From Bradyrhizobium agreste (GTDB lineage Bacteria > Pseudomonadota > Alphaproteobacteria > Rhizobiales > Xanthobacteraceae): DNA of 64,000 bases. Every line of letters starts with the position of its first letter. The first letter of the stretch is position 1. The notes beneath the pieces were generated by a model. That model saw nothing but the letters and a program-made list of their open reading frames with translations. It made no database searches and was not told where the DNA came from. Where the stretch lies: contig NZ_JACCHP010000003.1 of the NCBI RefSeq assembly GCF_016031625.1, positions 186,001 to 250,000 on the forward strand. Reading direction: 5' to 3'. This document shows, in pieces, positions 34,950-46,900 of this stretch. Made by a program: the position numbers and the translations under genes.

Positions 34950-36353
34950 TCAGCGGCCGTCCGGCGTGCGCACACCCGCCCAGCTGTCGCGGACCTGATG
35001 GTAGTGAACGCTGGGGTCGTAGGTCGTGGTCGCAAGGCCGAGGACTTGCGGCGACAGACGCCCGACCGCCGCGAGGACGTTATAGGATGCGACGACGCGA
35101 TCGTGCTGCGCGGTCACCAACGCAACGCGCGCATTCACCAGCGCCTGCTGCGCATTGAGTACGTCCAGCGTGGTGCGCTGGCCGGCCTTGGCCTCCTCAC
35201 GTACGCCGTTCAGGGCGATCTCGGACGCGGCCACCTGCGCCTGGGCCGACTGCACCTGCGCCTTGGTGGCCTGCAGCGAGCCCCACCATTGCACAACGGT
35301 CGCACGGGTCTGGTCGCGAGTCGTTTCGAGGTTGAGGCGCTGCTGCGCCAGGTTCTCCTTGGACTGGCGGATCAGCGCGTATTCGCTACCGCCCTGATAA
35401 ATCGGCACCGAGAGCTGCGCGATCGCGGATGCGCTGAACGAGCGCAACGAAATCAAGGACTGTTCGTTGGCCTGCGTGGCCGATGCCTGGATGGTCATCG
35501 TCGGCAGCAACGCACCTTCGGCGACCTTGACCTGCAGGTAATTGACGTCGATGCCGAACATCGCGGCCGTGACGTTGGGATGCTCGATGAGGCCAAGCTC
35601 GATCGCTGCGGCAAGGGTCGCGGGCAGGAAACGATCGACGGGTGAACCGGGTGCAAGATTCGTCGGCTCGTTGCCGATGATGCGGCGGAAGTTTGCGCGC
35701 GTGGTGGTGAGATTTGCCTCCGCGGTAAGGGCCTGGGTCCTGCCGGCGGCCAGCTGTGCTTCCGATTGCGCAACGTCGGTGCGCGTCACCTCGCCGACAT
35801 TGAAGCGATCGCGGGTCTGCTTCAATGTCTGCTCGAGCACGCGTACGTTGCTGCGCTGGACTTCCAGCGTTGCGGCATCGCGCAAATAGTCCATGTAGGT
35901 CGTTGCCGCCTGAAGCAGCACAGTTTGATCGAGGCTGCGCAGCGCTTCGCGGGCCCCGGACACCTGGCTCTCCGCCGCCCGCGTTCTGTTGGCGGTCTGA
36001 TTGCCATTGTAGAGCGTCTGCGAAGCGGTAATTCCAGCGCTGCGAGGTAACGTGGTTCCGTGGATCGAGTTGGTGCCGACGCCGCTCTGCAGATCCTGAT
36101 ATTGATAGCCACCGCTTGCCGTCATCGAGACCCGCGGACGATAGCCAGACAAGGCCTGCGGCACGTTTTCGTCGGTCGAGCGCACCTGGGCACGCTGCGC
36201 GTTGAGCTGCGGATTGTTCTGATAGGCGCGCACCAGTGCAGCGTCGATCGTATCCGCCAAGGCAGGCGTCGGCCCGGCAAGCGCCAGCAGCAGGACCGAA
36301 ACCGCAGCTCCGGTGAAGAGCTTCACCCCATGCATCCGTGAAATTCCGTTCAT
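34950..36353 (-). CDS. tolC: TolC-family outer-membrane efflux protein
   Basis: 467 residues. Signal peptide about residues 1-33 (LFTGAAVSVLLLALAGPTPA, then LADTID). Two structural repeats typical of TolC follow: NNPQLNAQRAQVRSTDENVP in the first, and LAQQRLNLETTRDQTRATVV with GQRTTLDVLNAQQALVNARV in the second. It forms the trimeric exit duct for type I secretion or RND pumps. The upstream same-strand pcm gene is a recurrent neighbour of tolC in Rhizobiales (from memory). No lipobox, unlike the outer-membrane factor at 51591. Confidence 0.94.
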   Translation of the reverse strand: MNGISRMHGVKLFTGAAVSVLLLALAGPTPALADTIDAALVRAYQNNPQLNAQRAQVRSTDENVPQALSGYRPRVSMTASGGYQYQDLQSGVGTNSIHGTTLPRSAGITASQTLYNGNQTANRTRAAESQVSGAREALRSLDQTVLLQAATTYMDYLRDAATLEVQRSNVRVLEQTLKQTRDRFNVGEVTRTDVAQSEAQLAAGRTQALTAEANLTTTRANFRRIIGNEPTNLAPGSPVDRFLPATLAAAIELGLIEHPNVTAAMFGIDVNYLQVKVAEGALLPTMTIQASATQANEQSLISLRSFSASAIAQLSVPIYQGGSEYALIRQSKENLAQQRLNLETTRDQTRATVVQWWGSLQATKAQVQSAQAQVAASEIALNGVREEAKAGQRTTLDVLNAQQALVNARVALVTAQHDRVVASYNVLAAVGRLSPQVLGLATTTYDPSVHYHQVRDSWAGVRTPDGR

Positions 36354-36538
36354 TCTAACGCCCGGCTCGTGCCCGCGAGCCGGGTTACCGTATCAATGGA
36401 GTCGTTGCCCCGTCGCAACATAGGACGCGGTCAAGCGCGACGGAACCACCCGAGGGTGGTTCTCAGTGGAAACTCTTCACGTGCAGCATCCCGGCCACAC
36501 TTCTGATTCAGAACGGGATTTGGGGCGGTTTTGGGCCA

Positions 36539-37201
36539 TCAGAAGACGAAGGCAGCCGCCCGTTCCAGCCCGGGAAGGACCGGGGCGGCGGCCTCGAACA
36601 GGGCCCGATGGCCGAATTCGCCGTGGGTACGGGTCACGATCAGCGCGCGCGGCGGCCTCGATTCGGCCGACACCCCCACCAGACGCCCCCCCTCCTTCAG
36701 CTGCCCGAGCAGAGCTTCCGGCATCACCTCGGCCGCGCCGTTGAGAACAATTACATCATAGGGGGCGGCAGCAGGGTCCCCGTCGGTGCAAGCCGCCGCC
36801 TTGCAGGCGACGTTAGAAAGCCCCTGGGCCGTGACGGCGTCTCTGGCCTTGGCGGCCAACGCCGAATCGCACTCGGTCGCCGTGACCTGACGCGCCAGCT
36901 TGGCGGCCAGTGCGGCGAGGTAGCCGGTGGCGCAGCCGACGACCAGAACGTTGTCGCCCTCGCCGATTTCGGCGGCCTGGAGCAGCTTGCCGGTCAGCGC
37001 CGGCTTGATCAGGAACCGCTTGGCGGGGCCTTCGCTCACGTCGAGGTCGAGATCGAGGTAAGCCAGCGCCTGCCTGCCGGCCGGCACGAACGCCTCGCGC
37101 GGCACCGTGAGCATGGCATCGAGAACACGACGGTCGGTGACGTCATTGGTGCGCACCTGGCCATCGACCATTTTTTGGCGCGCGGTCGAAAAACCGGACA
37201 T
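36539..37201 (-). CDS. Divergent protein-L-isoaspartate O-methyltransferase-like protein
   Basis: 220 residues with a PCMT-type Rossmann methyltransferase fold (GQVRTNDVTDRRVLDAMLTV, PREAFVP, SAM loop VLVVGCATGYLAAL). Several PCMT hallmarks are changed: the SAM loop is VGCATGY rather than the usual EIGTGSGY, and the substrate-loop S-Q-P is replaced in RFLIKPALTGKLL. It may therefore not repair isoaspartate. ATG 37201 is chosen because the upstream frame start (37261) adds non-family residues. Likely expressed with tolC, 185 bases downstream. Confidence 0.82.
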   Translation of the reverse strand: MSGFSTARQKMVDGQVRTNDVTDRRVLDAMLTVPREAFVPAGRQALAYLDLDLDVSEGPAKRFLIKPALTGKLLQAAEIGEGDNVLVVGCATGYLAALAAKLARQVTATECDSALAAKARDAVTAQGLSNVACKAAACTDGDPAAAPYDVIVLNGAAEVMPEALLGQLKEGGRLVGVSAESRPPRALIVTRTHGEFGHRALFEAAAPVLPGLERAAAFVF

Positions 37202-37320
37202 TTGCGGACCCTGCAATGCGGACGATGCCGCGGAGAAAAATCGCGGCATCTTTTGGAGCATGCTCGGTCAAAACGCAACATGGCGGTTCGAGGGCCGGCA
37301 AGGCTGCCGCACCTGGCGGA

Positions 37321-37500
37321 TTACTCGATGGCGACCGCGAGGCGACCGATCAGAGCGGCGACCTCGTCCAGCCGCGCCGAATCGGGCGTCTCGACCGCGC
37401 GCGCCAGACAGGCGAGGCATTCGTCGTCGCTCAAATTGGGGACGTCGGCAGGCAGAATCGAGGGGGCCATATGCGAATGGTCGATGTGGGTGTCTCGCAT
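37321..37500 (-). CDS. Small conserved-looking hypothetical protein (59 aa)
   Basis: MRDTHIDHSHMAPSILPADV continues to PNLSDDECLACLARAVETPD and ends LIGRLAVAIE. A GGAG is placed 8 bases before ATG 37500, and the frame closes with TAA at 37321. The acidic helix with two cysteines (CLAC) and the clean ribosome-binding site argue for a real gene. No family recognised. It lies upstream of the divergent pcm and could be its first operon member (120-base gap). Confidence 0.7.
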   Translation of the reverse strand: MRDTHIDHSHMAPSILPADVPNLSDDECLACLARAVETPDSARLDEVAALIGRLAVAIE

Positions 37501-37714
37501 GAAATCAGCTCCGTGAAGATCCGGCAGCCGCGAGGCTCGGAATCAATTGAGCCGATTTGACGCCGCCCCGATGGCGCGATGGCGTCCATGCACACATCTG
37601 TTTTGAAGGCGATTCCGGCCAGGGATCCGCCGACGTACCGCTCAGACGGCAACGCAACGGCATCGCGCATCACATCAAGACACGATCGCAACCAATTGAA
37701 GTTATGGAAAGATT

Positions 37715-37789
37715 TGGCTCCCCGGGCTGGATTCGAACCAGCGACCATCCGATTAACAGTCGGATGCTCTACCGCTGAGCTACCGAGGA
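37715..37789 (-). tRNA. tRNA-Asn (GTT)
   Basis: 75 bases including an encoded CCA. The acceptor stem TCCTCGG pairs with CCGGGGA. The anticodon arm TCCGA-CTGTTAA-TCGGA gives anticodon GTT. The T arm contains GGTTCGAATCC. Cloverleaf complete. Confidence 0.97.
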
Positions 37790-37835
37790 AAAGGGCGAAC
37801 CGTTCGTTCGCGCGCGGCTGCGTATAACAAAGCCG

Positions 37836-37880
37836 CTTGCGCTTGCAAAGGACGAATTCACCGTCCTCTGCAAACGCAAG
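37836..37880 (-). terminator. Terminator-like hairpin after the flotillin gene
   Basis: CTTGCGCTTGCAAAGGACG (37836-37854) pairs with CGTCCTCTGCAAACGCAAG (37862-37880): 19 bp with two non-Watson-Crick positions and a 7-base loop. It lies 14 bases beyond the flotillin stop and before tRNA-Asn. No U-tract follows. Confidence 0.6.
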
Positions 37881-37893
37881 CCTGTCACCAGGA

Positions 37894-39591
37894 TTACTCG
37901 GCGGCCTCGGTCTTTTCGAGGACCGCGGCCGGCGCAGGCACGGCCGCGCCGTTGCTCTTTCCTGTCACGGCGCCGACCAGCGCCTTTACCGGATCGTCGC
38001 CGGGCGCAAAGCCGCTCTGGCGCAGGATCTCGTCGATCATCGGACGCAGCGCATGGACCTTGAGCAGCTCGCCGGCCAGACCTTCGCCGAAGCCGACATT
38101 GCCGCCGCTCGCGCCGTTGCCGCCGAACGCGCCGCCGGTGTGCAGGATGCGGACGTCCTTGAGGTTCGCAATCGGCTTCACCATCTCGGCCAGGGCCGAG
38201 GGCATGGTCTCGATCCGCTTCTTGGCGATCTCGAAATCAATCACGTTGCTGCCGAGCTTGTTCTGCGCCTCGTTCTTCATGGTGATGACGGCAGCTTCCG
38301 CCTCGCCGATGTTGCGCACGCCGACCGCCTTGATCTTGTTGGATTCGGCTTCCGCCGTGGCCAGCGTCTTGACGGCCTCGGCGCGGTCGAGCGAGGCCTT
38401 CTTCTCGGCTTCGGCCGCGACGATCAGCTCGGTCGACTTGCGCTCGGCCTCGGTCCGGGCGGCGAGCACCTGGGTGAGACGGGCGCGATCGGCGACCTCG
38501 ACCGCGCGTGCGGTCACGACCTTTTCTTCGGCCGAGACGGCCAGCGCTTCGGCGGCCTTGGCCTCGGCGACGGCTTCCGAGGTCTGCTTGCTCTTCGCCG
38601 CGATCTGGATCTCGTTCTCCTGCGTCGCGATCTGGATCTCGCGCTGGGCGTCGGTCTTGCGCTTGTTGATTGCGAGGTCCGACTCGATCACCGCGGTTTC
38701 CTTGACCTGCTTGGCGCCGGCCTCCTTCTCGGCAACCGCCCTGTCAGTATCGATGCGGGCATTCTCCTCGGTCAGGCGCGCGGTCTGCGTCGCGGTTGCG
38801 ACCTCGGCGCGGGTGCTCGCCGTCTTGTTGGCGATGTCGCGCTCTTGCGACAGCTCCGCCTCTTTCTTGGTGCGTTCGATGGTCAGGGTCTGCTGCCGCG
38901 CCTCGAGGTCCTTCTGCGCGATCGCCACCTCGTTGTCGCGCACGATGGCGTTGCGGTCGCGGCGACGGGTCTCGGTGATGGTCTTCAGCTGCGTGAGGCC
39001 TTCGGCGTCGAAGAAGTTCTCGGGGTTGAAGAACTTGACGTCGGTCTGGTCGAGCTTGGTCAGCGACACCGATTCCAGCTCGAGGCCGTTCGACTTGACG
39101 TCGGACTCGACCGTGGACTGCACGTGCTTGACGAAATCCGAGCGCTTCTCCTGAAGCTCCAGGATGGTCATGGTCGCCGCGACCGAGCGCAGGCCGTCGA
39201 CGAATTTCGCCTCGACCTGGTTGCGCAGCGCCTCGGCGTCATTGGTCAATGCGCCGAGCGTCTGGCTCGCGAGCGCGATGCTCTCCTCGTCGGGACGGAC
39301 GCGGACGTAGAACTCGGCGACGATGTCGACGCGCAGGCGGTCCTTGGTGATCAGGGATTCCCGCTCCTTGCGCTCGACGGTGAGGCGCAACGTCTTCAAA
39401 TTGACGCTGGCATAGGAGTGGAAGATCGGCAGGATCATGGCGCCGCCATCGAGCACGACCTTCTTGCCGCCGAGCCCGGTGCGCACGAAGGCCTCGTCGC
39501 GGGTGGCGCGCTTGTAGAGAATCGTGAAGACGATCCCCAGGACGACGATCAGCGCGACGCCGATCACGGCCGGGACTGCGATGTCGAACAT
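37894..39591 (-). CDS. Flotillin-family membrane scaffold protein (YqiK-like)
   Basis: 565 residues. One N-terminal membrane helix (VPAVIGVALIVVLGIVFTIL), then an SPFH/band-7 domain (AFVRTGLGGKKVVLDGGAMI, RVDIVAEFYVRV), then a very long Glu/Ala coiled coil (residues about 190-430) with the repeated EA/KA heptads typical of flotillins. Flotillins organise ordered membrane patches. It is third in an operon with a PspA-containing gene and a YqiJ-like gene, the recurring partnership of flotillin, NfeD/OB-fold and PspA in bacteria. Confidence 0.92.
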   Translation of the reverse strand: MFDIAVPAVIGVALIVVLGIVFTILYKRATRDEAFVRTGLGGKKVVLDGGAMILPIFHSYASVNLKTLRLTVERKERESLITKDRLRVDIVAEFYVRVRPDEESIALASQTLGALTNDAEALRNQVEAKFVDGLRSVAATMTILELQEKRSDFVKHVQSTVESDVKSNGLELESVSLTKLDQTDVKFFNPENFFDAEGLTQLKTITETRRRDRNAIVRDNEVAIAQKDLEARQQTLTIERTKKEAELSQERDIANKTASTRAEVATATQTARLTEENARIDTDRAVAEKEAGAKQVKETAVIESDLAINKRKTDAQREIQIATQENEIQIAAKSKQTSEAVAEAKAAEALAVSAEEKVVTARAVEVADRARLTQVLAARTEAERKSTELIVAAEAEKKASLDRAEAVKTLATAEAESNKIKAVGVRNIGEAEAAVITMKNEAQNKLGSNVIDFEIAKKRIETMPSALAEMVKPIANLKDVRILHTGGAFGGNGASGGNVGFGEGLAGELLKVHALRPMIDEILRQSGFAPGDDPVKALVGAVTGKSNGAAVPAPAAVLEKTEAAE

Positions 39592-39614
39592 GACTTTCTC
39601 CGCTGTGGGACTTG

Positions 39615-40274
39615 CTAATTGCTTAGAGTGGGCTTGGACGGCTTGAGTTCATCGTCGGCCTTCACCGCGACGAAGCGTGTGCCATCGCGATCTACCAGGA
39701 GGACCATGGTTCCCTGCGGCAAAGGTCCCGATGACGGCGCCGCGACCGCCGAGACGAAATGGCGGTTACCGTGGACGTCGGCGACGCTGACGCGGCCGGG
39801 CGGCCCCTGGTCGAGCGGGCCGACGACGACCTCCCCGATCCGGCCGACGAGATCCCCAAGGCCCACGACGTAGCTTTCGTCCTTGGGTATGACCCGCGCG
39901 ATGGCCCTGCTGGCGCCGCGCACCAGCGGAACCGACGCCACGACGGCCCCGACGGAGGCGACCGTGGCCGGCAAGGGACCCGCAACCATTCGCGCGAGGT
40001 CCTGGATCAGGAAGCCGGTGATGGAGAAGGCGCCGAGCAGCAGCAGCAGGAAGATCAAGAGCGGCACGCCGCCGACATTGATCCAGGAGATGGCGTTGAG
40101 CACGCCGTTGTCGCTGGGATGAGCAAAATCGATGTTGGTGCCGAGCATCTCGCTCAAGGAGGCCCCGACCAGCATCGAGATCACCTCGACCGAGCCGACG
40201 ATGACGATCATGGCCGCTGCAATCGCGAACGGCCTGACCTCAGGCGACATGACGTGTTCGAGCAGAGCGCTCAT
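39615..40274 (-). CDS. YqiJ-like membrane protein with OB-fold domain
   Basis: 219 residues. Three hydrophobic segments (FAIAAAMIVIVGSVEVISML; VGGVPLLIFLLLLLGAFSIT; AGPLPATVASVGAVVASVPL). A soluble C-terminal beta domain follows (GLGDLVGRIGEVVVGPLDQG, then PGRVSVADVHGNRHFV), an OB-fold like that of NfeD proteins. NfeD/YqiJ proteins work with flotillins. It lies 23 bases before the flotillin gene and 10 bases after the PspA gene. Confidence 0.85.
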   Translation of the reverse strand: MSALLEHVMSPEVRPFAIAAAMIVIVGSVEVISMLVGASLSEMLGTNIDFAHPSDNGVLNAISWINVGGVPLLIFLLLLLGAFSITGFLIQDLARMVAGPLPATVASVGAVVASVPLVRGASRAIARVIPKDESYVVGLGDLVGRIGEVVVGPLDQGPPGRVSVADVHGNRHFVSAVAAPSSGPLPQGTMVLLVDRDGTRFVAVKADDELKPSKPTLSN

Positions 40275-40284
40275 GGCACGGCAC

Positions 40285-41439
40285 TCAGGAGCCCGACTTC
40301 AGCCGGGCCAGCCTCGCTGCGATCTCTTTGTCGCGATGGAGCGTGCTCAGCTCGTCGATGTCGCTCGAATAAGGAATTCCCGGCGGCACGCCGGTGGTCC
40401 GTGCCACCGCCCTGCCCGCTCGCAGCGCCTTGGCGGCAGCGGAGGTGCCGCCGGATTTCCGTGACGACATCGACGCCTGTGGCCTGGCGGCCGCCTCGCT
40501 CTTTTCGAGATCGGCGCGGCGCTGCTCGGCATCCTGGAGCGCCGACAGCACCGCACGCAGCGAGGTGACGCACTGTTCGATCTTCTCGTTGTTCTCGTCG
40601 ACGGCGCGGGAGAGCACCTCGAACTGCGCCTCCAGATCCATTTGCCGCGCGATGCCGGCGCGGGCGAGATCATCGCGCCCGTCCACGACCGCGGCCTCGA
40701 TCTTGGCGGTAAGATCGGTCATCGCCCGCTCGATCTCGCTGCGGCGCGCGTTGAGACGATATTCCTCGGCGCGCGCGGCGGCGAGCGCATCGCGCGCTTC
40801 CGTCTCGGCGCGCTCGATCTCGCGGATGGCTTGACCGACCACCTTCAGCTTGTTCTTGCCTTCCGCCTGCTCGATCGCGTCGTACGCGATCCCGGCAATG
40901 AGACGTCCCACCCGGGACAGGAGGTTGTCGGGAGCGGCAGCGATGGTATCCATGGCGTTCTCCTCCTCTGGCAGGCTGTTCGGCGTGACGCCGTAGTGAA
41001 CTTCGAAACCGTCGTCGGTGCGGATGAGGCGCGCCGGCACGCTCTGCCCCCAGCCCTCGGCATAGCCGGCGTAGTCGAAGGGCACGCTGAAGCGCCCTTG
41101 CACGGTCGCGATCGAAATGGTGGCGGGCCCCTTGATCTTGGCGAGCTTGTCGTCGAGCGGCAGGCGGCGCCCTGGCGAGGCGCGATACTCGTTGCGGTCG
41201 CGCAGGCCCAGAGTCACCAGCCGCGAGGGCAGCGCGGTCTGTTTGCGGATCGGCTCATAGGCATGGGCGTGGAGCAGGACCACGTTGGAACCCACATTGT
41301 GAGTCCGCGCCACCTCCTCGAGGATCTCCATCATGCGGTCATAGGCCTGAAACGTCGCCTCGATGGCGGCCTTGGCGGCCGGGTCAGGGGCAAGCCTGTA
41401 ACGCAGCGCGGACGGCGTGTTTCGGGGCGACTGGCTCAT
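40285..41439 (-). CDS. TnpB-like N-terminal region fused in frame to a PspA/IM30 domain
   Basis: 384 residues from ATG 41439. Residues 163-384 are PspA/IM30-like: an N-terminal amphipathic helix (DNLLSRVGRLIAGIAYDAIE) followed by long charged coiled coils, as in ESCRT-III-like membrane-repair proteins. Residues about 10-160 resemble the N-terminal half of IS200/IS605 TnpB (Cas12f relatives): ALRYRLAPDP; LHAHAYEPIRKQTALPSRLV (56-75); RRLPLDDKLA (91-100); TISIATVQGRFSVPF; ARLIRTDDGFEVHYGV; then P-E-E-E. It stops just where TnpB would begin its RuvC nuclease, so no nuclease is present. ATG 41439 has no ribosome-binding site and follows a long palindrome; an internal ATG (40953) has an excellent one, so a 222-residue PspA alone may also or instead be made. 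It heads the operon with YqiJ-like and flotillin genes. The PspA call is firm; the TnpB relation comes from motif reading. Confidence 0.8.
   Translation of the reverse strand: MSQSPRNTPSALRYRLAPDPAAKAAIEATFQAYDRMMEILEEVARTHNVGSNVVLLHAHAYEPIRKQTALPSRLVTLGLRDRNEYRASPGRRLPLDDKLAKIKGPATISIATVQGRFSVPFDYAGYAEGWGQSVPARLIRTDDGFEVHYGVTPNSLPEEENAMDTIAAAPDNLLSRVGRLIAGIAYDAIEQAEGKNKLKVVGQAIREIERAETEARDALAAARAEEYRLNARRSEIERAMTDLTAKIEAAVVDGRDDLARAGIARQMDLEAQFEVLSRAVDENNEKIEQCVTSLRAVLSALQDAEQRRADLEKSEAAARPQASMSSRKSGGTSAAAKALRAGRAVARTTGVPPGIPYSSDIDELSTLHRDKEIAARLARLKSGS
40961..40969 (-). promoter_or_regulatory. Consensus internal ribosome-binding site for a PspA-only product
   Basis: On the minus strand AGAGGAGGA is followed by GAACGCC and ATG (40953). 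This places AGGAGG 8 bases before the start, ideal spacing, while also encoding Glu-Glu-Glu of the fused frame. Confidence 0.7.
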
Positions 41440-41445
41440 GGAAAG

Positions 41446-41474
41446 CACTAAAGCACCATTTTGGTGCTTTAGTG
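41446..41474. promoter_or_regulatory. 29-bp perfect inverted repeat just upstream of the PspA operon
   Basis: CACTAAAGCACCA (41446-41458), a TTT spacer and TGGTGCTTTAGTG (41462-41474): 13-bp perfect arms, ending 7 bases before ATG 41439. It looks like an operator for a dimeric repressor, or a leader hairpin sequestering the start region. The half TGGTGCTTTAGTG is partly echoed by TGCTTT right before the start codon. Confidence 0.7.
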
Positions 41475-41831
41475 AGAGGAAGCTCGATCACGTTCTGCTG
41501 ATCCATATGCACTCTGTCGGTTAGTCGCGACGGTCCGGGCCCACGTTCAAAGCGGCCGATCACTCCTAGCTCACGACCAATCAAGACATCTTGCACGCGC
41601 CGGTTGCAATTTGAGTCGAAATGCGGGGAGCGTTCTGTAGGCCGTCACTCGCTCTGCGCCTAGAGCGAAATCGATTTCTCCATCTCGCCAAGGCCCCCGA
41701 ATGTCATCGGCCTCCGCCGACGCAACTCCACGGTCGTCCACAGTCTGTCCGCAGCATATCCACAGGCTGACCAGCGCGAATCGTGAGGGTGCGCGAGGCA
41801 CTTGCTGCGCACAAACCCACAAGCTCGGCGT
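41475..41831. other. Gene-free stretch upstream of the PspA operon
   Basis: About 355 bases with no convincing gene on either strand. It includes the short perfect palindrome AAATCGATTT within GAGCGAAATCGATTTCTC (about 41663-41680). The promoter of the PspA operon must lie here; I could not identify a sigma-54 -24/-12 pair like that of enterobacterial psp. Confidence 0.45.
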
Positions 41832-42092
41832 TCAACCGCCGGCCTGATCGAATACGCTGCGGCAGGCCTCGCTGAGGCTGCCGCGGTTGCGGCGCAGGCA
41901 GGCGGTGATGGCGCGGACGTTGGGGATCTCGCCGGCGCAGAGCCGGTAGACGTCAGGGGTACAGGCCCGCCGCTGCTCCGCCGTTCCCTGTGCATGAGCC
42001 GCGGAGGCAAACAGCGTCAGGAACAGCCCGACTGTTGAGGCGCCCCGCGCCCGGCTTTTCACGCCCGCAAACCGCAAGAACCTCGCCTTCAT
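41832..42092 (-). CDS. Small secreted cysteine-containing protein
   Basis: 86 residues. Signal peptide ending near ASAAHAQG (VGLFLTLFASAAHA). The mature part has four cysteines in RRACTPDVYRLCAGEIPNVR, AITACLRRNRG and SLSEACRSVF, a C-x7-C plus C-x11-C pattern of small secreted cysteine-rich-repeat proteins common in Bradyrhizobiaceae (from memory). Likely periplasmic with two disulfides. ATG 42092 gives the signal peptide; the frame is open further upstream. Confidence 0.8.
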   Translation of the reverse strand: MKARFLRFAGVKSRARGASTVGLFLTLFASAAHAQGTAEQRRACTPDVYRLCAGEIPNVRAITACLRRNRGSLSEACRSVFDQAGG

Positions 42093-42354
42093 GACCAGTC
42101 TCCCGCTCGGCCCTGCCCGCTCCGGCCTGCATTGGCCGGCACGGGGCAAAGGGGTAGGAGAAATAAACCGCCGGGAATGTGATCTCCTCCACACCCGCTG
42201 CGCGGCGGCGGCTCGTAGGGTTGCTCCGGGGATTTTCAGGAATCGCTAACCATTCGGGGCCCAATCGCCGCATCGTTAAAATGCGAACGATCGGGTCAAT
42301 CCGGAAACAAACGTGCTTTGCGACATTGCGCCATCCGCGTTCTGCGAGGGTGTG

Positions 42355-42561
42355 ATGAGCGAAGCCGAATTCAATTTGCTGCTGGATGCTGTCCGGGACG
42401 CCATGGCCTTTGAGGATTTCGCGCCCGTGCCGGTGGAGGAATACGTGCCCCGCTCATGGAGCTTCGACACAACGCCCAAGGTTGCCAATAAGGCCGCCAA
42501 TGACAACGAGGGCGCCTGGCCCCTCCTGCCCTTTCCCGACGGCTGGTACGCGGCCTGCTGA
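42355..42561 (+). CDS. Small hypothetical protein (68 aa)
   Basis: MSEAEFNLLLDAVRDAMAFE then DFAPVPVEEYVPRSWSFD, followed by VANKAANDNEGAWPLLPFPD and a GWYAAC end. A GAGGG lies just before ATG 42355. The A-A-N-D-N sequence recurs in small rhizobial proteins (from memory). Function unknown; acidic helical N-terminus with an aromatic C-terminus. Confidence 0.6.
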   Translation: MSEAEFNLLLDAVRDAMAFEDFAPVPVEEYVPRSWSFDTTPKVANKAANDNEGAWPLLPFPDGWYAAC

Positions 42562-42641
42562 GGCCGACTTCTCGTAAGCGGATGCGGCTCGCCGTGCGGG
42601 CGGCCCGGCCTCACGAGCCCCCACGCCCCGTGCAACGACGA

Positions 42642-42821
42642 TCAATTCTTGAGTCGCTCTTCACCGTCCCGCGGTGCCCGCTCGGGTACGGCCGGCGGGA
42701 AGATGCTGTCGTAGATCGCGCGCGCCTCACGAATGAGACGAGCCTTCTCCAGCTCGGATTTCGAGACAAATCGGACGATTTCGCCCACGTGCTCTCCAGC
42801 GCTCGTTGATGGGACATGCAT
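42642..42821 (-). CDS. Small hypothetical protein (59 aa)
   Basis: MHVPSTSAGEHVGEIVRFVS followed by KSELEKARLIREARAIYDSI and FPPAVPERAPRDGEERLKN. The predicted helix with REARAIYDSIFPP resembles short conserved rhizobial proteins. ATG 42821 is chosen; the frame continues upstream into tRNA-Cys, so that extension is not coding. No recognised domain. Confidence 0.6.
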   Translation of the reverse strand: MHVPSTSAGEHVGEIVRFVSKSELEKARLIREARAIYDSIFPPAVPERAPRDGEERLKN

Positions 42822-42968
42822 CACTTCGCAGATGCGAAGTCTGTGCCATCCGAACTGAATCGCGGGTTTCCGCCAAGCCCCGGACAAATCCGGTGGGCGC
42901 GGCTCGTCAGGCCTTGCTCGAAAGCCAAGACAAACTCGCATTTCTGCTGGAAAATCAGAAGCTTGTGA

Positions 42969-43042
42969 TGGAGGCCACGACCAGAATTGAACTGGTGTAC
43001 ACGGTTTTGCAGACCGTTGCGTAACCACTCCGCCACGTGGCC
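42969..43042 (-). tRNA. tRNA-Cys (GCA)
   Basis: 74 bases including encoded CCA. The acceptor stem GGCCACG pairs with CGTGGCC, discriminator T. The anticodon loop CTGCAAA gives GCA. T arm GGTTCAATTCT region present (GTTCAAT). Cloverleaf complete. Confidence 0.97.
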
Positions 43043-43126
43043 CCGTAAGGGCGGACCAATATAGGGGATCAATGGCTTAGGCAACCCCACGGCCCGCGGG
43101 TAGCGCAGCGAAATGTCCAGCCGAAA

Positions 43127-43867
43127 TCAGGCGCGCTTGCCGCGTCGGAAGTCGCGCCGGCGGCCCTTGGGCGCGGGCTTGGGTGCCAGTTCCGGCATCT
43201 CGTCCTGGACCTCGCGGTAGCGAGCCAGCATCCGTTCGAAACTGGCATGAAGCGTCTCGGCGATATCAGGGCGCCGCTCGAGGCCGGCGAGGATGGTCGC
43301 GGCGGCTTCGATCGTCGAGAGGCCGTCGCGGCGCGGCTCCTTGCGCAAGCGCCCGTAGCGAGAGGGATGTGCCGGATTGAGGATCACGCGCTGGCATTTC
43401 AGCATCCAGGGATTGCGCCACCACAGCGCCTTGGCCTGGCTCCAGGTGCCGTCGAGCAGCACCACGCCTTCGAGCTTGCCGAGGATCGCGCGCTGGTTCT
43501 CCGCGATTTCGCCCTTGCGGTTGAGCGCGACGATCTCGCCTTCGGCATCGAGGTCGGCAGCGCGCGCCGAGCCGAGATAGAGCACGGCCCAGCGCGCGGC
43601 ATTCTCGACCGGCCGCCCCAGCGCCTTGGACAGGCTCGGCCAGGACAGGCCGACCCGCACCGTGGCATCGGCGAAGTGCCTGGCCAGCAGCCGCGCCGTG
43701 CCGAGCGCCCTGTCCTGCTCCTGCGGATGCTGGAGGATCAGCAGCGAGAGCCGGTTTTCAATCGGCGTGACGCTGTCGCAGATGCACAGCGGCATCGGCT
43801 TTTGGCAGTGCGGGCATTCGGGGATCGGCTCGGCCGGCGCGGCGGCAGTCTCGGGCGGCTTGGACAT
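43127..43867 (-). CDS. DTW-domain tRNA-uridine aminocarboxypropyltransferase
   Basis: 246 residues. The family (TapT/TuaA) forms acp3U in tRNA from SAM. Visible are the zinc-like cysteines CPHCQKPMPLCICDSV, the LLILQHPQEQDRALGTARL strand, the DTW-type motif as DGTWSQAKALWWRNPWM, and the PSRYGRLRKEPRRDGLSTIE loop. The C-terminal tail is basic (KGRRRDFRRGKRA). Start MSKPPETAAAPAEP. Next to tRNA-Cys, though adjacency need not mean substrate. Confidence 0.88.
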   Translation of the reverse strand: MSKPPETAAAPAEPIPECPHCQKPMPLCICDSVTPIENRLSLLILQHPQEQDRALGTARLLARHFADATVRVGLSWPSLSKALGRPVENAARWAVLYLGSARAADLDAEGEIVALNRKGEIAENQRAILGKLEGVVLLDGTWSQAKALWWRNPWMLKCQRVILNPAHPSRYGRLRKEPRRDGLSTIEAAATILAGLERRPDIAETLHASFERMLARYREVQDEMPELAPKPAPKGRRRDFRRGKRA

Positions 43868-43903
43868 GGCGCCGCTATACGCTTCGCGCGGCGCTGCAAC
43901 AAC

Positions 43904-46900
43904 CTATTCCGCCGGTGCCGCCAGCGGACGCGGCTCGGAGCGGCGCCGCATGCGGTCGATCAGGAGGTAGATCACGGGCGTCGTGTACAGCGTCAGGATC
44001 TGCGAGACGAACAGGCCGCCGATGATGGTGATGCCGAGCGGGCGACGCAGCTCCGTGCCGGGGCCGGTCGCGATGACCAGCGGAATGCCGGCAAACAGCG
44101 CGGCCATGGTCGTCATCAGGATCGGGCGGAAGCGCGCCTGGCAGGCCTCGAAGATCGCCTCGGCCGAGGACAGCCCGCGCTGGCGCTCGGCATCGAGCGC
44201 GAAGTCCACCATCATGATGCCGTTCTTCTTGACGATGCCGATCAAGAGGATGATGCCGACGAAGGCGATCACCGTCAGCGGCGTGTTGGTGAGCTGCAAG
44301 GCCAGCAGCGCACCTAAGCCGGCCGAGGGCAGCGTCGAGATGATCGTGAGCGGATGGGCGAGGCTCTCATAGAGCACCCCGAGGACGATATACATCGCGA
44401 CCAACGCGCCGAGAATCAGGAGCGGCTGGCGACCGCTGGTCCTGGCGAAGTCGCCGGCGTTGCCGTCGAAGCTGCCGCGAATGCCTTCGGGCATGTGCAA
44501 CTCGTCGACCGCACGCTGGATGTTCTGGGTCGCCGCCTGAAGCGGCACGTCCGGCATCAGATTGAAGGACACCGTGGTCGATGGGAACGACTGCGAATGA
44601 TAGACGGCGAGCGCAGCGAGCCCGCGCGTCGTGCGCACCACGGCCGACAACGGCACCTGCGCATCACCCGCGCCGGCGACGTAGATGCGATCGAGATTGG
44701 AGGGATCGACCTGGAACTTCGGGTCGATCTCCAGCACGGTCATGTACTGGTTGCGCTGGGTATAGATGATGGAGATCTGCCGCTGTGCGAAAGCATTGTT
44801 CAGCGCGTTGTCGATGTCCTGGACCCTGACGCCGAGCGCGGACGCCTTCTGGCGGTCGATGGAGAGCGTCAGCTGCAGCCCGCCGGGGTCACGATCGCTG
44901 GAGATGTCGGTGATGCCCTCGACGCTCTCCATGCGCTTGGCCACGATCGGCGCCCATGTCTGCAGCAGGCCGAGATCGGTGCTGGTGAGCGTATATTGGT
45001 AGTCGGAATCGCTCTGCCGCCCGCCCGCGCGCACGTCCTGGGCGGCGAACATGAAGAGGCGGATGCCGGGCACGGGATACAGCGCACGCCTGAGCCGGTC
45101 GATCACGACCTGCGTCGATACGTGGGCGCGCTCCTCCGGCGGTTTCAGGCTGATGAACATGGTGCCGCGGTTCGAGGTCGCCGGCCCTGGGCCCCCGCCT
45201 CCGCTGCCGACCGTCGAGCCGATGCCGGCCACGGCCGGATCCTGCATCACGATCTCGGCGAGCCGCTGCTGCAGGCCGAGCATCGACTGGAACGAGATGT
45301 CCGCCGAGGCGCGCGTCGCGCCGATGATGAAGCCGGAATCGTCCGTCGGGAAGTAGCCCTTGGGAACCTTGATGTAGAGCGTCACCGTGAGAGCGATGGT
45401 GGCGAAGAACACCAGCAGCGTCAACAGCGGGAATTCCAGCACGGTGCGCAGGCTGCGGGCGTAGAACACGATGGTGCGCGACAGCGCGCCTTCAACGATG
45501 CGATCGAACAGCGTTGCCGTGCCGGAGGTGGTCTGCCGGATGTAATGGGCGCAAATCATCGGCGTGACCGTCAGCGATACCAGCGTCGAAACCAGAATGG
45601 CGAAGGTCAGCGTCAGCGAGAATTCGCGCAAGAGTCGGCCGACGACGCCGTCCATGAAGATCAGCGGCGTGAACGCCGCGATCAGCGACAGGCTGATCGA
45701 GACCACGGTGAAGCCGATCTGCCTGGCGCCCTCCTGCGCCGCCCGGAACGGCCGCATGCCGTGCTCGAGATTGCGGAACATGTTCTCGATCATGACGATG
45801 GCGTCGTCGACGACGAAGCCGACGGAGATGGCAAGCGCCATCAGCGACAAATTGTCGATGGAGAAGCCCGCGACCCACATGCCGGCGCACGTGCCGGCGA
45901 GTGCCAGCGGCACCGAGATGCCGGCCGCGATGGTCGGGGTCAGCCGCCGCAGGAACACGAACACGACGACCATCACCAAGACGGCCGTTGCCAGCAGCGT
46001 CCATTGCATGTCCAGCACGCTGGCGCGGATCGTGCCGGTTCGATCGACCAGGGTCGAGATCTCGACACCGGCGGGTATCCACTGTTTCAGTTCGGGGATC
46101 AGCGCCTTGACCCGGTCGACGGTGTCGATGACGTTGGCATCGCCCTGCTTGGTGATCTGAATCAGAACTGCCGGTTGCTTGTTGAACCAGGCGATCGAGC
46201 GGACGTTGCGGACGGAATCCTCGATGTCGGCGACGTCGGACAGCCGCACGAAATTGGTGCCCGAGCCCTTGATGACGATGTCGCGGAACTCCTTCGCCGT
46301 GCGCATCTGCCTGTTCAGCGACAGCGTTTCGCTTTGGCGCTCGCCTTGGAAGATGCCCACGGGGCCGAGCGCGTTGGCGCCGATGATCGCGGTCCGGATG
46401 TCATCGGTCGAAATTCCGGCATTGGACAGCGCAACCGGGTTGAGCTGCACCCGCACGGCCGGCTGGTCGGCGCCGGAGATCGACACGTTGCCGACGCCCG
46501 GCACCTGGGAGATGCGTTGCGCCAAAACGCTGTCGGCGACGTCGTAGATCGCCGAGGGAGAGATCGTCTTTGAGGTCAACGCCAGCACGAAGATGGGTGC
46601 GCCGGCGGTGTTCGCCTTGCGGAAACGCGGCAGCGACGGCAGGTCGCTCGGCAGGTCGACCATCGCGGCGTTGATGGCCGCCTGCACGTCACGCGCGGCC
46701 TTGTCGATGTTGCGGCCGATGTCGAACTGGAGCTGGATGCTGGTCGTGCCGAGGCTCGAGGTCGAGGTGATCTGGTTGATGCCGGCGATCTCTCCCAACC
46801 GCCGCTCCAGTGGCGAAGCCACCGTCGCCGCCATCACGGACGGGTCGGCACCGGGCCGGCTGGCGGAGACGAAGATGGAGGGGAAGTCGACGTTCGGGAC

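What the first reader, a model, noticed from the sequence alone, without database searches (positions are those of the whole stretch)
40285..41439. TnpB (IS605 OrfB)-like N-terminal region joined in frame to a PspA membrane-repair protein
Residues 10-160 follow the TnpB/Cas12f N-terminal pattern in order: RYRLAPDP start, LH-x2-AY-x2-IR-x4-LPSRLV, a LPLDDK box, SIATVQGRFSVPF, and a DDGFEVHYGV strand followed by P-E-E-E. They end where the RuvC nuclease would start, and a PspA domain begins at once. The cut at a domain border, the intact frame and an operon with flotillin suggest exaptation of a transposon RNA-binding module into an envelope-stress protein, distinct from known nuclease-dead TnpB repressors that keep the RuvC fold.
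Basis: partly seen in the sequence, partly recalled or inferred. Interest (0 to 1): 0.85.

Follow-up and report, generated by a model that had tools for sequence, protein, structure and literature searches.

The report
Transposon-derived DNA reader fused to PspA
A piece of a transposon's RNA-guided nuclease, with its cutting half gone, is joined to a membrane-repair protein in many soil bacteria, where it probably recognises a short DNA site in its own promoter and so controls its own operon.

Summary
The gene is real: 384 aa, one open frame, PspA at residues 172-336. Residues about 10-153 have the TnpB WED-REC fold: Foldseek ranks 1-17 are all TnpB/Cas12/Fanzor, VIA Z 11.2 to ISDra2 TnpB 1-184, and family sequences retrieve true TnpBs. 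The match ends where RuvC begins. The fusion is open in 129 of 130 distinct orthologs from at least three bacterial orders, all followed by yqiJ, under purifying selection. TnpB-like positive charge is gone, but a promoter dyad, AAAGCAC-N7-GTGCTTT here, is present in 129 of 130 loci and has no second exact copy in 17 carrier genomes tested. Its base 5 follows residue 73: GTG/CAC with Arg in 117 of 117, with Gln in 0 of 13. Of 362 columns only residue 73 matches perfectly; it aligns to TnpB's TAM-reading segment. Best explanation: a guide-free, TnpB-derived autorepressor fused to its membrane-stress sensor. DNA binding is untested, and only three independent residue changes were seen.

The parts
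40285..41439 (-). fusion gene: TnpB-derived WED-REC domain + PspA (384 aa and stop)
40954..41439 (-). residues 1-162: N-terminal part; folded domain about residues 10-153 with TnpB WED-REC fold, no RuvC
41221..41223 (-). codon of Arg73, start of the third REC helix; residue that covaries with the operator
41131..41133 (-). codon of Lys103, WED loop; second-best covarying residue
41450..41470 (.). dyad AAAGCAC-N7-GTGCTTT, proposed operator; the only exact copy in the genome
40960..40968 (-). GAGGAGGAG, Shine-Dalgarno-like stretch before an internal ATG
40285..40953 (-). PspA part (residues 163-384 and stop) from the internal ATG at 40951-40953; may also be made as a free protein (inferred)
39615..40274 (-). 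YqiJ-like membrane/OB-fold protein, next gene of the operon
   Evidence: a YqiJ homolog follows in 130 of 130 distinct loci
37894..39591 (-). flotillin (YqiK-like), third gene
   Evidence: found in 114 of 130 loci, and in 71 of 71 with over 2600 nt of downstream sequence

Best explanation
The N-terminal 160 residues descend from the WED-REC lobe of a transposon TnpB. They lost the nuclease half and most of the positive charge but kept the groove that reads the TAM duplex. This domain now acts without a guide: two copies, held together by PspA oligomers (or on their own), bind the dyad AAAGCAC-N7-GTGCTTT, which lies between the -35 and -10 boxes of the gene's own promoter, and repress the pspA-yqiJ-flotillin operon. 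The PspA part senses membrane damage; on binding the membrane it pulls the repressor off DNA and repairs the membrane, so sensor, effector and repressor are one chain. An internal start with its own Shine-Dalgarno site probably adds free PspA. Shown: fold, fusion, conservation, dyad, lack of further exact copies, and its covariation with residue 73. Inferred: binding, repression, dimer, release by membrane stress, promoter boxes, internal start, leaderless mRNA.
For: Fold and homology. Conserved fusion, synteny and purifying selection. Dyad with at least 5 of 7 complementary pairs in 129 of 130 distinct loci (the extraction favoured AA...TT ends), with TTG at the -35 register (within 0-2 bases) in 24 of 28 representatives. 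No second exact copy in the 17 R73-type genomes tested, all chosen among carriers of an exact dyad; none at all in 5 Bradyrhizobium genomes without the gene and in 3 Q73-type genomes. Covariation: among 130 distinct orthologs, Arg73 goes with GTG/CAC in at least one half-site in 117 of 117 (right half GTG in 115), Gln73 in 0 of 13; 92 of the 130 fall in two Bradyrhizobium-like clusters. Of 362 columns (151 N-domain, 211 PspA; 27 representatives) position 73 is the only perfect one (1.0); 103 (0.65) and 105 (0.52) rank next, and the best PspA column reaches 0.43. Bridged alignments put 72, 73 and 76 on ISDra2 K76, F77 and Q80 and 106-107 on T123-N124 in 3 of 3 modes; these ISDra2 residues read the TAM (PMC10097598, passages). 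On the tree both traits change 3 times, together. In G1202 the domain stands alone, 17 nt before yqiJ and with no room for PspA, and keeps an exact dyad. Charge loss. No transcription-factor gene recurs next to the operon in the six annotated plasmid loci.
Against: No binding or expression data. Only 3 independent changes (2 on well-supported branches), so the sign test cannot reach significance, and the tree warns of long branches (L149, L032, L138, L001). L032 (Q73) has no clear dyad in register. The window's own promoter has a poor -35 and the consensus scan found none. In 8 of 28 representatives an ATG overlaps the end of the dyad, so the start codon and a leaderless mRNA are less sure there. 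TnpB is known to bind its target with RNA (recalled), so guide-free reading would need a gain of affinity. Alignment of residue 73 to ISDra2 changed with the sequences used. The internal Shine-Dalgarno site is only modestly above synonymous shuffles (17 of 23 against mean 12.9, highest 19).
Confidence: 0.7

Rival explanations
1. A separate transcription factor, encoded elsewhere, binds the dyad; the TnpB-derived domain does something else, such as protein-protein contact or regulating PspA assembly.
For: No direct binding data exist; PspA oligomers and flotillin offer protein partners; the gene for a regulator could lie anywhere.
Against: With one exact dyad per genome this regulator would have a single target; residue 73 at the TAM-reading segment follows the operator base through 3 changes; the domain persists with the operator where PspA is missing from the operon (L166).
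Confidence: 0.13
2. It still works as an RNA-guided DNA binder like TldR, with a small guide RNA encoded elsewhere.
For: TnpB ancestry; TldR shows that TnpB relatives can be reused as regulators (abstract start of PMC13418256 in a listing).
Against: RuvC half absent; N-domain charge lost; no Rfam match but two tRNAs within 36-44 kb; a guided protein would not need a conserved dyad that tracks one residue.
Confidence: 0.06
3. The dyad is an mRNA hairpin in the leader and the domain, once an RNA binder, controls its own translation there.
For: Stem of 7 pairs with a 7-nt loop; at base 5 many Bradyrhizobium variants change the left arm to a G-U wobble (12 loci) and few the right arm (2 loci); the loop is rich in A or purines on the sense strand in most loci.
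Against: Promoter-like boxes flank the dyad in most representatives and in 16 of 28 the first ATG follows 10-12 nt later, which fits a leaderless mRNA that would not contain the dyad (inferred); the charge loss speaks against RNA binding.
Confidence: 0.07
4. A relic: the domain is an inert N-terminal extension kept only because it leads translation into PspA.
For: The internal start could make functional PspA alone.
Against: dN/dS about 0.10-0.13, 24 invariant positions in an 11-row alignment that reaches 30% identity, and presence without PspA in G1202.
Confidence: 0.04

Closest known systems
TnpB of IS200/IS605-type elements (e.g. Allomeiothermus silvanus WP_013157086.1; ISDra2 TnpB)
   Same: WED-REC fold; invariant L16, Y61, R65, D96, T112, G115, R116 shared with five TnpB or TnpB-like rows; residue 73 and loop 103-107 at or beside TAM-reading positions
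   Different: no RuvC or zinc ribbon, near-neutral charge, no omega-RNA found, fixed place before yqiJ-flotillin, own promoter dyad
TldR (TnpB-derived RNA-guided transcription factors; recalled, plus abstract start of PMC13418256)
   Same: TnpB relative reused as a regulator
   Different: TldR keeps a dead RuvC fold and uses a guide RNA (recalled); here RuvC is gone, charge is lost, and a dyad tracks one protein residue
PspA/IM30 with YqiJ and flotillin (Ravi et al. 2024, PMC11237479, section 13 read, other passages by find)
   Same: PspA domain; operon with YqiJ-like and flotillin-like genes
   Different: that text names tandem PspA, NlpC/P60 and PspAA fusions and does not contain 'transposase' or 'OrfB'; its supplements and web app were not seen
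E. coli PspA-PspF control (recalled)
   Same: PspA links membrane stress to transcription of its own operon
   Different: there PspA inhibits a separate sigma-54 activator; here the DNA reader would be part of PspA itself

Membership tests
TnpB | WED-REC N-terminal lobe | tested here: met
   Foldseek ranks 1-17 and VIA Z 11.2, rmsd 5.4, 148 residues aligned to 8bf8_A
TnpB | RuvC nuclease with D-E-D and zinc ribbon | tested here: not met
   chain continues into PspA; no RuvC or OrfB zinc-ribbon match in Pfam or NCBIfam
TnpB | omega-RNA at the 3' end of the gene / right end of the element | tested here: inconclusive
   no Rfam family but two tRNAs in 36000-44000; undescribed RNAs would be missed
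TldR | retained but inactive RuvC fold | tested here: not met
TldR | guide RNA matching a target promoter | not tested
   needs RNA data
PspA/IM30 | PspA_IM30 domain | tested here: met
   PF04012 E 3e-13, 50.3 bits against cut-off 33.9
PspA/IM30 | long coiled-coil hairpin | tested here: met
   model helices 197-252 and 256-317, pLDDT about 90 in most blocks
PspA/IM30 | N-terminal amphipathic membrane helix | tested here: inconclusive
   a helix is predicted at 173-191 but with low confidence in part, and its amphipathic character was not measured
PspA equivalog (TIGR02977) | phage-shock PspA score cut-off | tested here: not met
   36 bits against a cut-off of 242.95
dyad-binding transcription factor | specific binding to the operator | not testable with these tools
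   covariation only

The most novel reading that the evidence does not exclude
A new class of transcription factor: a TAM-reading TnpB lobe that works without guide RNA and without a nuclease, recognising a dyad operator by a one-residue code (Arg for GTG, Gln for GTC/GTA), built into PspA so that one polypeptide senses membrane stress, repairs the membrane and controls its own operon.
Probability: 0.6. Interest if true: 0.93.

Novelty: new variant of a known kind. Interest (0 to 1): 0.86.

Why it matters
Reuses of TnpB that I know of (Cas12, TldR; recalled) keep a guide RNA and the RuvC fold. This one appears to have kept only the part that reads the TAM and turned it into an ordinary DNA-binding domain. 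If so, it gives a guide-free TAM reader with a visible specificity code, a new origin for a transcription factor fold, and an answer to how these bacteria might control pspA-yqiJ-flotillin operons from within the operon. The claim can be tested with one purified domain and short DNA duplexes. If binding fails, the conserved fusion is still a domain architecture that I found described nowhere, hidden in plasmid records as 'PspA/IM30 family protein'.

Tried and rejected
Sequence profiles A2 and A4 against PDB sequences: no hit up to E 10; the relation shows only by fold or through TnpBs close to the family. Pfam and NCBIfam scans of six divergent N-domains: nothing above a curated cut-off and nothing TnpB-related. 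tblastn with the window's own N-domain listed no annotated TnpB in plasmids, only a TnpB-N-like Thermobacillus protein at E 0.06; a divergent ortholog in phages gave only E of 1 or worse. hhalign of A4 to the single ISDra2 sequence was not informative, and MAFFT without bridging TnpBs placed Q80 on residue 80 or 71. The regular expression for the PspA start missed 4 of 27 rows with PspA and took the wrong Met in two, L018 and L136. Hits rejected as unrelated by reading their frames: G422, G1052, G601, G087. In the operator count L023 (low score, contig end) and nine loci (TnpB or TnpB-like L114-L117, L152; remnant L150; unrelated L153-L155) were dropped, leaving 150 loci, 130 distinct. Literature, titles and abstract starts only unless said; none described this fusion; only the held open-access library was searched. 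Passages of PMC9239133 and PMC8987985 do not mention it; in PMC9239133 'transposase' and 'fusion' do not occur.

Full report
WHAT WAS CHECKED. The frame at 40285-41439 (-) encodes 384 aa. Residues 172-336 match PspA_IM30 (E 3e-13). Downstream lie YqiJ (39615-40274) and flotillin (37894-39591), same strand. The N-terminal 162 residues have no significant match in Pfam or NCBIfam; the TnpB-related one is HTH_OrfB_IS605 at E 0.23.

IT IS A TnpB WED-REC DOMAIN. An AlphaFold2 model of residues 1-162 (21-row alignment; mean pLDDT 82.4, pTM 0.79) was compared with the PDB. Foldseek ranks 1-17 are all TnpB, Cas12, TranC or Fanzor chains (7wju E 1.9e-4; ISDra2 TnpB 8ex9 E 1.1e-3 and 8bf8 E 1.8e-3); the first unrelated chain is rank 18 at E 0.15. 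VIA-align gives Z 11.2 (rmsd 5.4, 148 residues) to ISDra2 TnpB residues 1-184, and the 50 rows shown are all of this superfamily. In ISDra2, WED is 1-12 and 117-176, REC 13-116, RuvC from 185 (PMC10097598, passages). So the match ends where RuvC would begin. Sequence agrees: tblastn with a divergent ortholog's N-domain (L030) finds annotated TnpBs at E 6e-5 and 0.01, and the family profile finds a complete TnpB (L152; RuvC and zinc-ribbon motifs visible) at E 7.9e-9. Against this, profile searches of PDB sequences found nothing and the window's own N-domain alone found no annotated TnpB in plasmids.

THE FUSION IS OLD AND KEPT. Whole fusions, own genome included where it was in the sample: 21 of 60 relatives (one further cut by a contig end, three hits PspA only); 24 of 397 genomes of the order plus one decayed remnant, G790; 6 of 385 in the class sample after dropping one unrelated hit; 9 of 398 in the phylum sample, all within the class, after dropping a TnpB and three unrelated hits; 8 of 75 genomes in the family of G245, and 4 of 17 in that of G096, one of which has the domain alone. 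Of the 36 genomes of the window's own genus, 15 have no match at all, so it is patchy. G245 and G395 represent two orders other than the window's. Among 130 distinct loci the frame runs on into PspA in 129, YqiJ follows in 130, and flotillin is found in 114, including 71 of 71 with over 2600 nt of downstream sequence. Plasmid copies in Shinella, Bosea, Rhizobium and Agrobacterium are annotated 'PspA/IM30 family protein' (one A. tumefaciens copy 'hypothetical protein'); the six fetched are followed by an OB-fold gene and a flotillin gene. dN/dS (NG86, ratio of means) is 0.098 for the N-domain and 0.119 for PspA in 12 Bradyrhizobium-type sequences, 0.127 and 0.114 in 8 of a second clade.

IT PROBABLY NO LONGER BINDS A GUIDE RNA. 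Net charge of the N-domain in 28 representatives is -6 to +6; four of five TnpB or TnpB-like N-domains have +11 to +16 (the halophile has -10) and ISDra2 has +16. RuvC, which in ISDra2 holds much of the omega-RNA (passages), is absent. Rfam finds only two tRNAs between 36 and 44 kb. This is indirect; no RNA test was possible.

A PRIVATE OPERATOR. At 41450-41470 lies AAAGCAC-N7-GTGCTTT, a perfect dyad that ends 10 bases before the start codon. It is the only exact copy in the 7.9-Mb genome, and matches with up to two mismatches are no commoner than a control (8 against 15). I then searched 25 chosen genomes: in 17 with an R73-type gene and an exact dyad there is exactly one copy, at that gene; there is none in 5 Bradyrhizobium genomes without the gene and none in 3 with a Q73-type gene. 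Of 130 distinct loci, 95 have all 7 pairs, 29 have 6, 5 have 5, and L032 has no clear dyad (the extraction favoured AA...TT ends). In 28 representatives TTG precedes the dyad within 0-2 bases of one register in 24, and a TATA-like stretch overlaps or follows its right arm in most; in 16 the first ATG follows 10-12 nt after it, in 8 an ATG overlaps its end; 22 have no Shine-Dalgarno match before the first ATG. This suggests a leaderless mRNA with the dyad in the core promoter. In the window itself the -35 is poor and the consensus scan found no promoter.

THE OPERATOR FOLLOWS ONE RESIDUE OF THE DOMAIN. In the 130 distinct orthologs residue 73 is Arg in 117 and Gln in 13. All 117 Arg proteins have GTG/CAC in at least one half-site (right half GTG in 115; L068 and L106 only on the left); none of 13 Gln proteins has (right halves GTC 5, GTA 2, TTA 2, ATC 2, CTC 1, and L032). 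The set is uneven: 92 of 130 fall in two clusters. In representatives at 85% identity position 73 is the only one of 362 columns with a perfect association; 103 and 105 come next (0.65 and 0.52), and the best of 211 PspA columns, an internal control with the same ancestry, reaches 0.43 (28 rows and N-domain alone give the same first three). On a tree built with residue 73 masked, both traits change three times and together; independent pairs are 3 (2 on well-supported branches), all concordant, too few for significance, and some long branches are uncertain. One change is shared by L163 and L166, Arg proteins inside a Gln clade whose operators have GTG. With bridging TnpBs, three alignment modes place 72, 73 and 76 on ISDra2 K76, F77 and Q80, and 106-107 on T123-N124; these residues read the TAM (PMC10097598, passages). 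Without bridges the placement varied. Tyr61, invariant in 22 rows that include five TnpB or TnpB-like rows, falls on ISDra2 Y52 in 2 of 3 modes.

THE DOMAIN CAN STAND ALONE. In G1202 (L166) the domain is a separate gene (185-codon frame) with R73 and an exact dyad; the YqiJ frame opens 17 nt after its last codon and flotillin follows, so PspA is missing from the operon. Whether PspA lies elsewhere in that genome was not searched. This fits a regulator of the operon rather than an accessory of PspA.

INTERNAL START. The PspA part begins with Met163 after GAGGAGGAG. A 5-nt or longer Shine-Dalgarno match precedes the PspA Met in 17 of 23 representatives, against 7 of 103 other in-frame Met codons, but synonymous shuffling gives a mean of 12.9 and a highest value of 19, because the Glu/Lys codons alone favour it. 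The full-length model (18-row alignment, pLDDT 76.2, pTM 0.42) has the N-domain, a low-confidence linker 154-178 and the PspA helices. Free PspA is plausible, not shown.

MECHANISM AND STANDING. I conclude that the TAM-reading lobe of a TnpB was recruited as an autorepressor of the operon, fused to its membrane sensor and effector. Origin and fusion: about 0.95 sure. Operator reading by the domain: about 0.75. Guide-free repression relieved by membrane binding: inferred. Ravi et al. 2024 (section 13 read, other passages by find) name tandem PspA, NlpC/P60 and PspAA fusions; 'transposase' and 'OrfB' do not occur in its main text. No title or abstract start listed in eight literature searches describes this fusion. 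I file it as a new variant of a known kind (host reuse of TnpB); if guide-free reading is proved it would be a new kind.

Noticed in passing
L116:2498-3028 (Thermobacillus composti plasmid pTHECO01): A 'hypothetical protein' of 176 residues that is only a TnpB-like N-terminal lobe, with a Shine-Dalgarno-like stretch before it, directly before an S-layer-domain gene: a possible second, independent RuvC-less TnpB reuse, or a truncated relic.
   Followed up: partly
window 41486-41503: A second dyad, GATCA-N8-TGATC, upstream of the operator, also in other Bradyrhizobium clade-1 loci (L003, L012, L013). Possible activator site.
   Followed up: no
L150:1456-1680 (G790): Decayed remnant of the fusion in a genome of the window's genus: pieces of the WED part joined to the last PspA residues.
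   Followed up: no
L045, L053, L058, L059, L066, L077, L080, L083, L107, L109, L112, L132 against L068, L106: Among imperfect R-type dyads base 5 is changed in the left half in 12 distinct loci and in the right half in 2, an asymmetry that a symmetric dimer does not explain.
   Followed up: no
window 37718-37789 and 42972-43042: Two tRNA genes flank the operon on the - strand (Rfam).
   Followed up: no
L032 (G395): Q73-type fusion whose promoter has TTGACT and a TATCTT-like stretch but no dyad in register; a partial dyad AAAGGAC-N7-TTACTTT lies further upstream.
   Followed up: no
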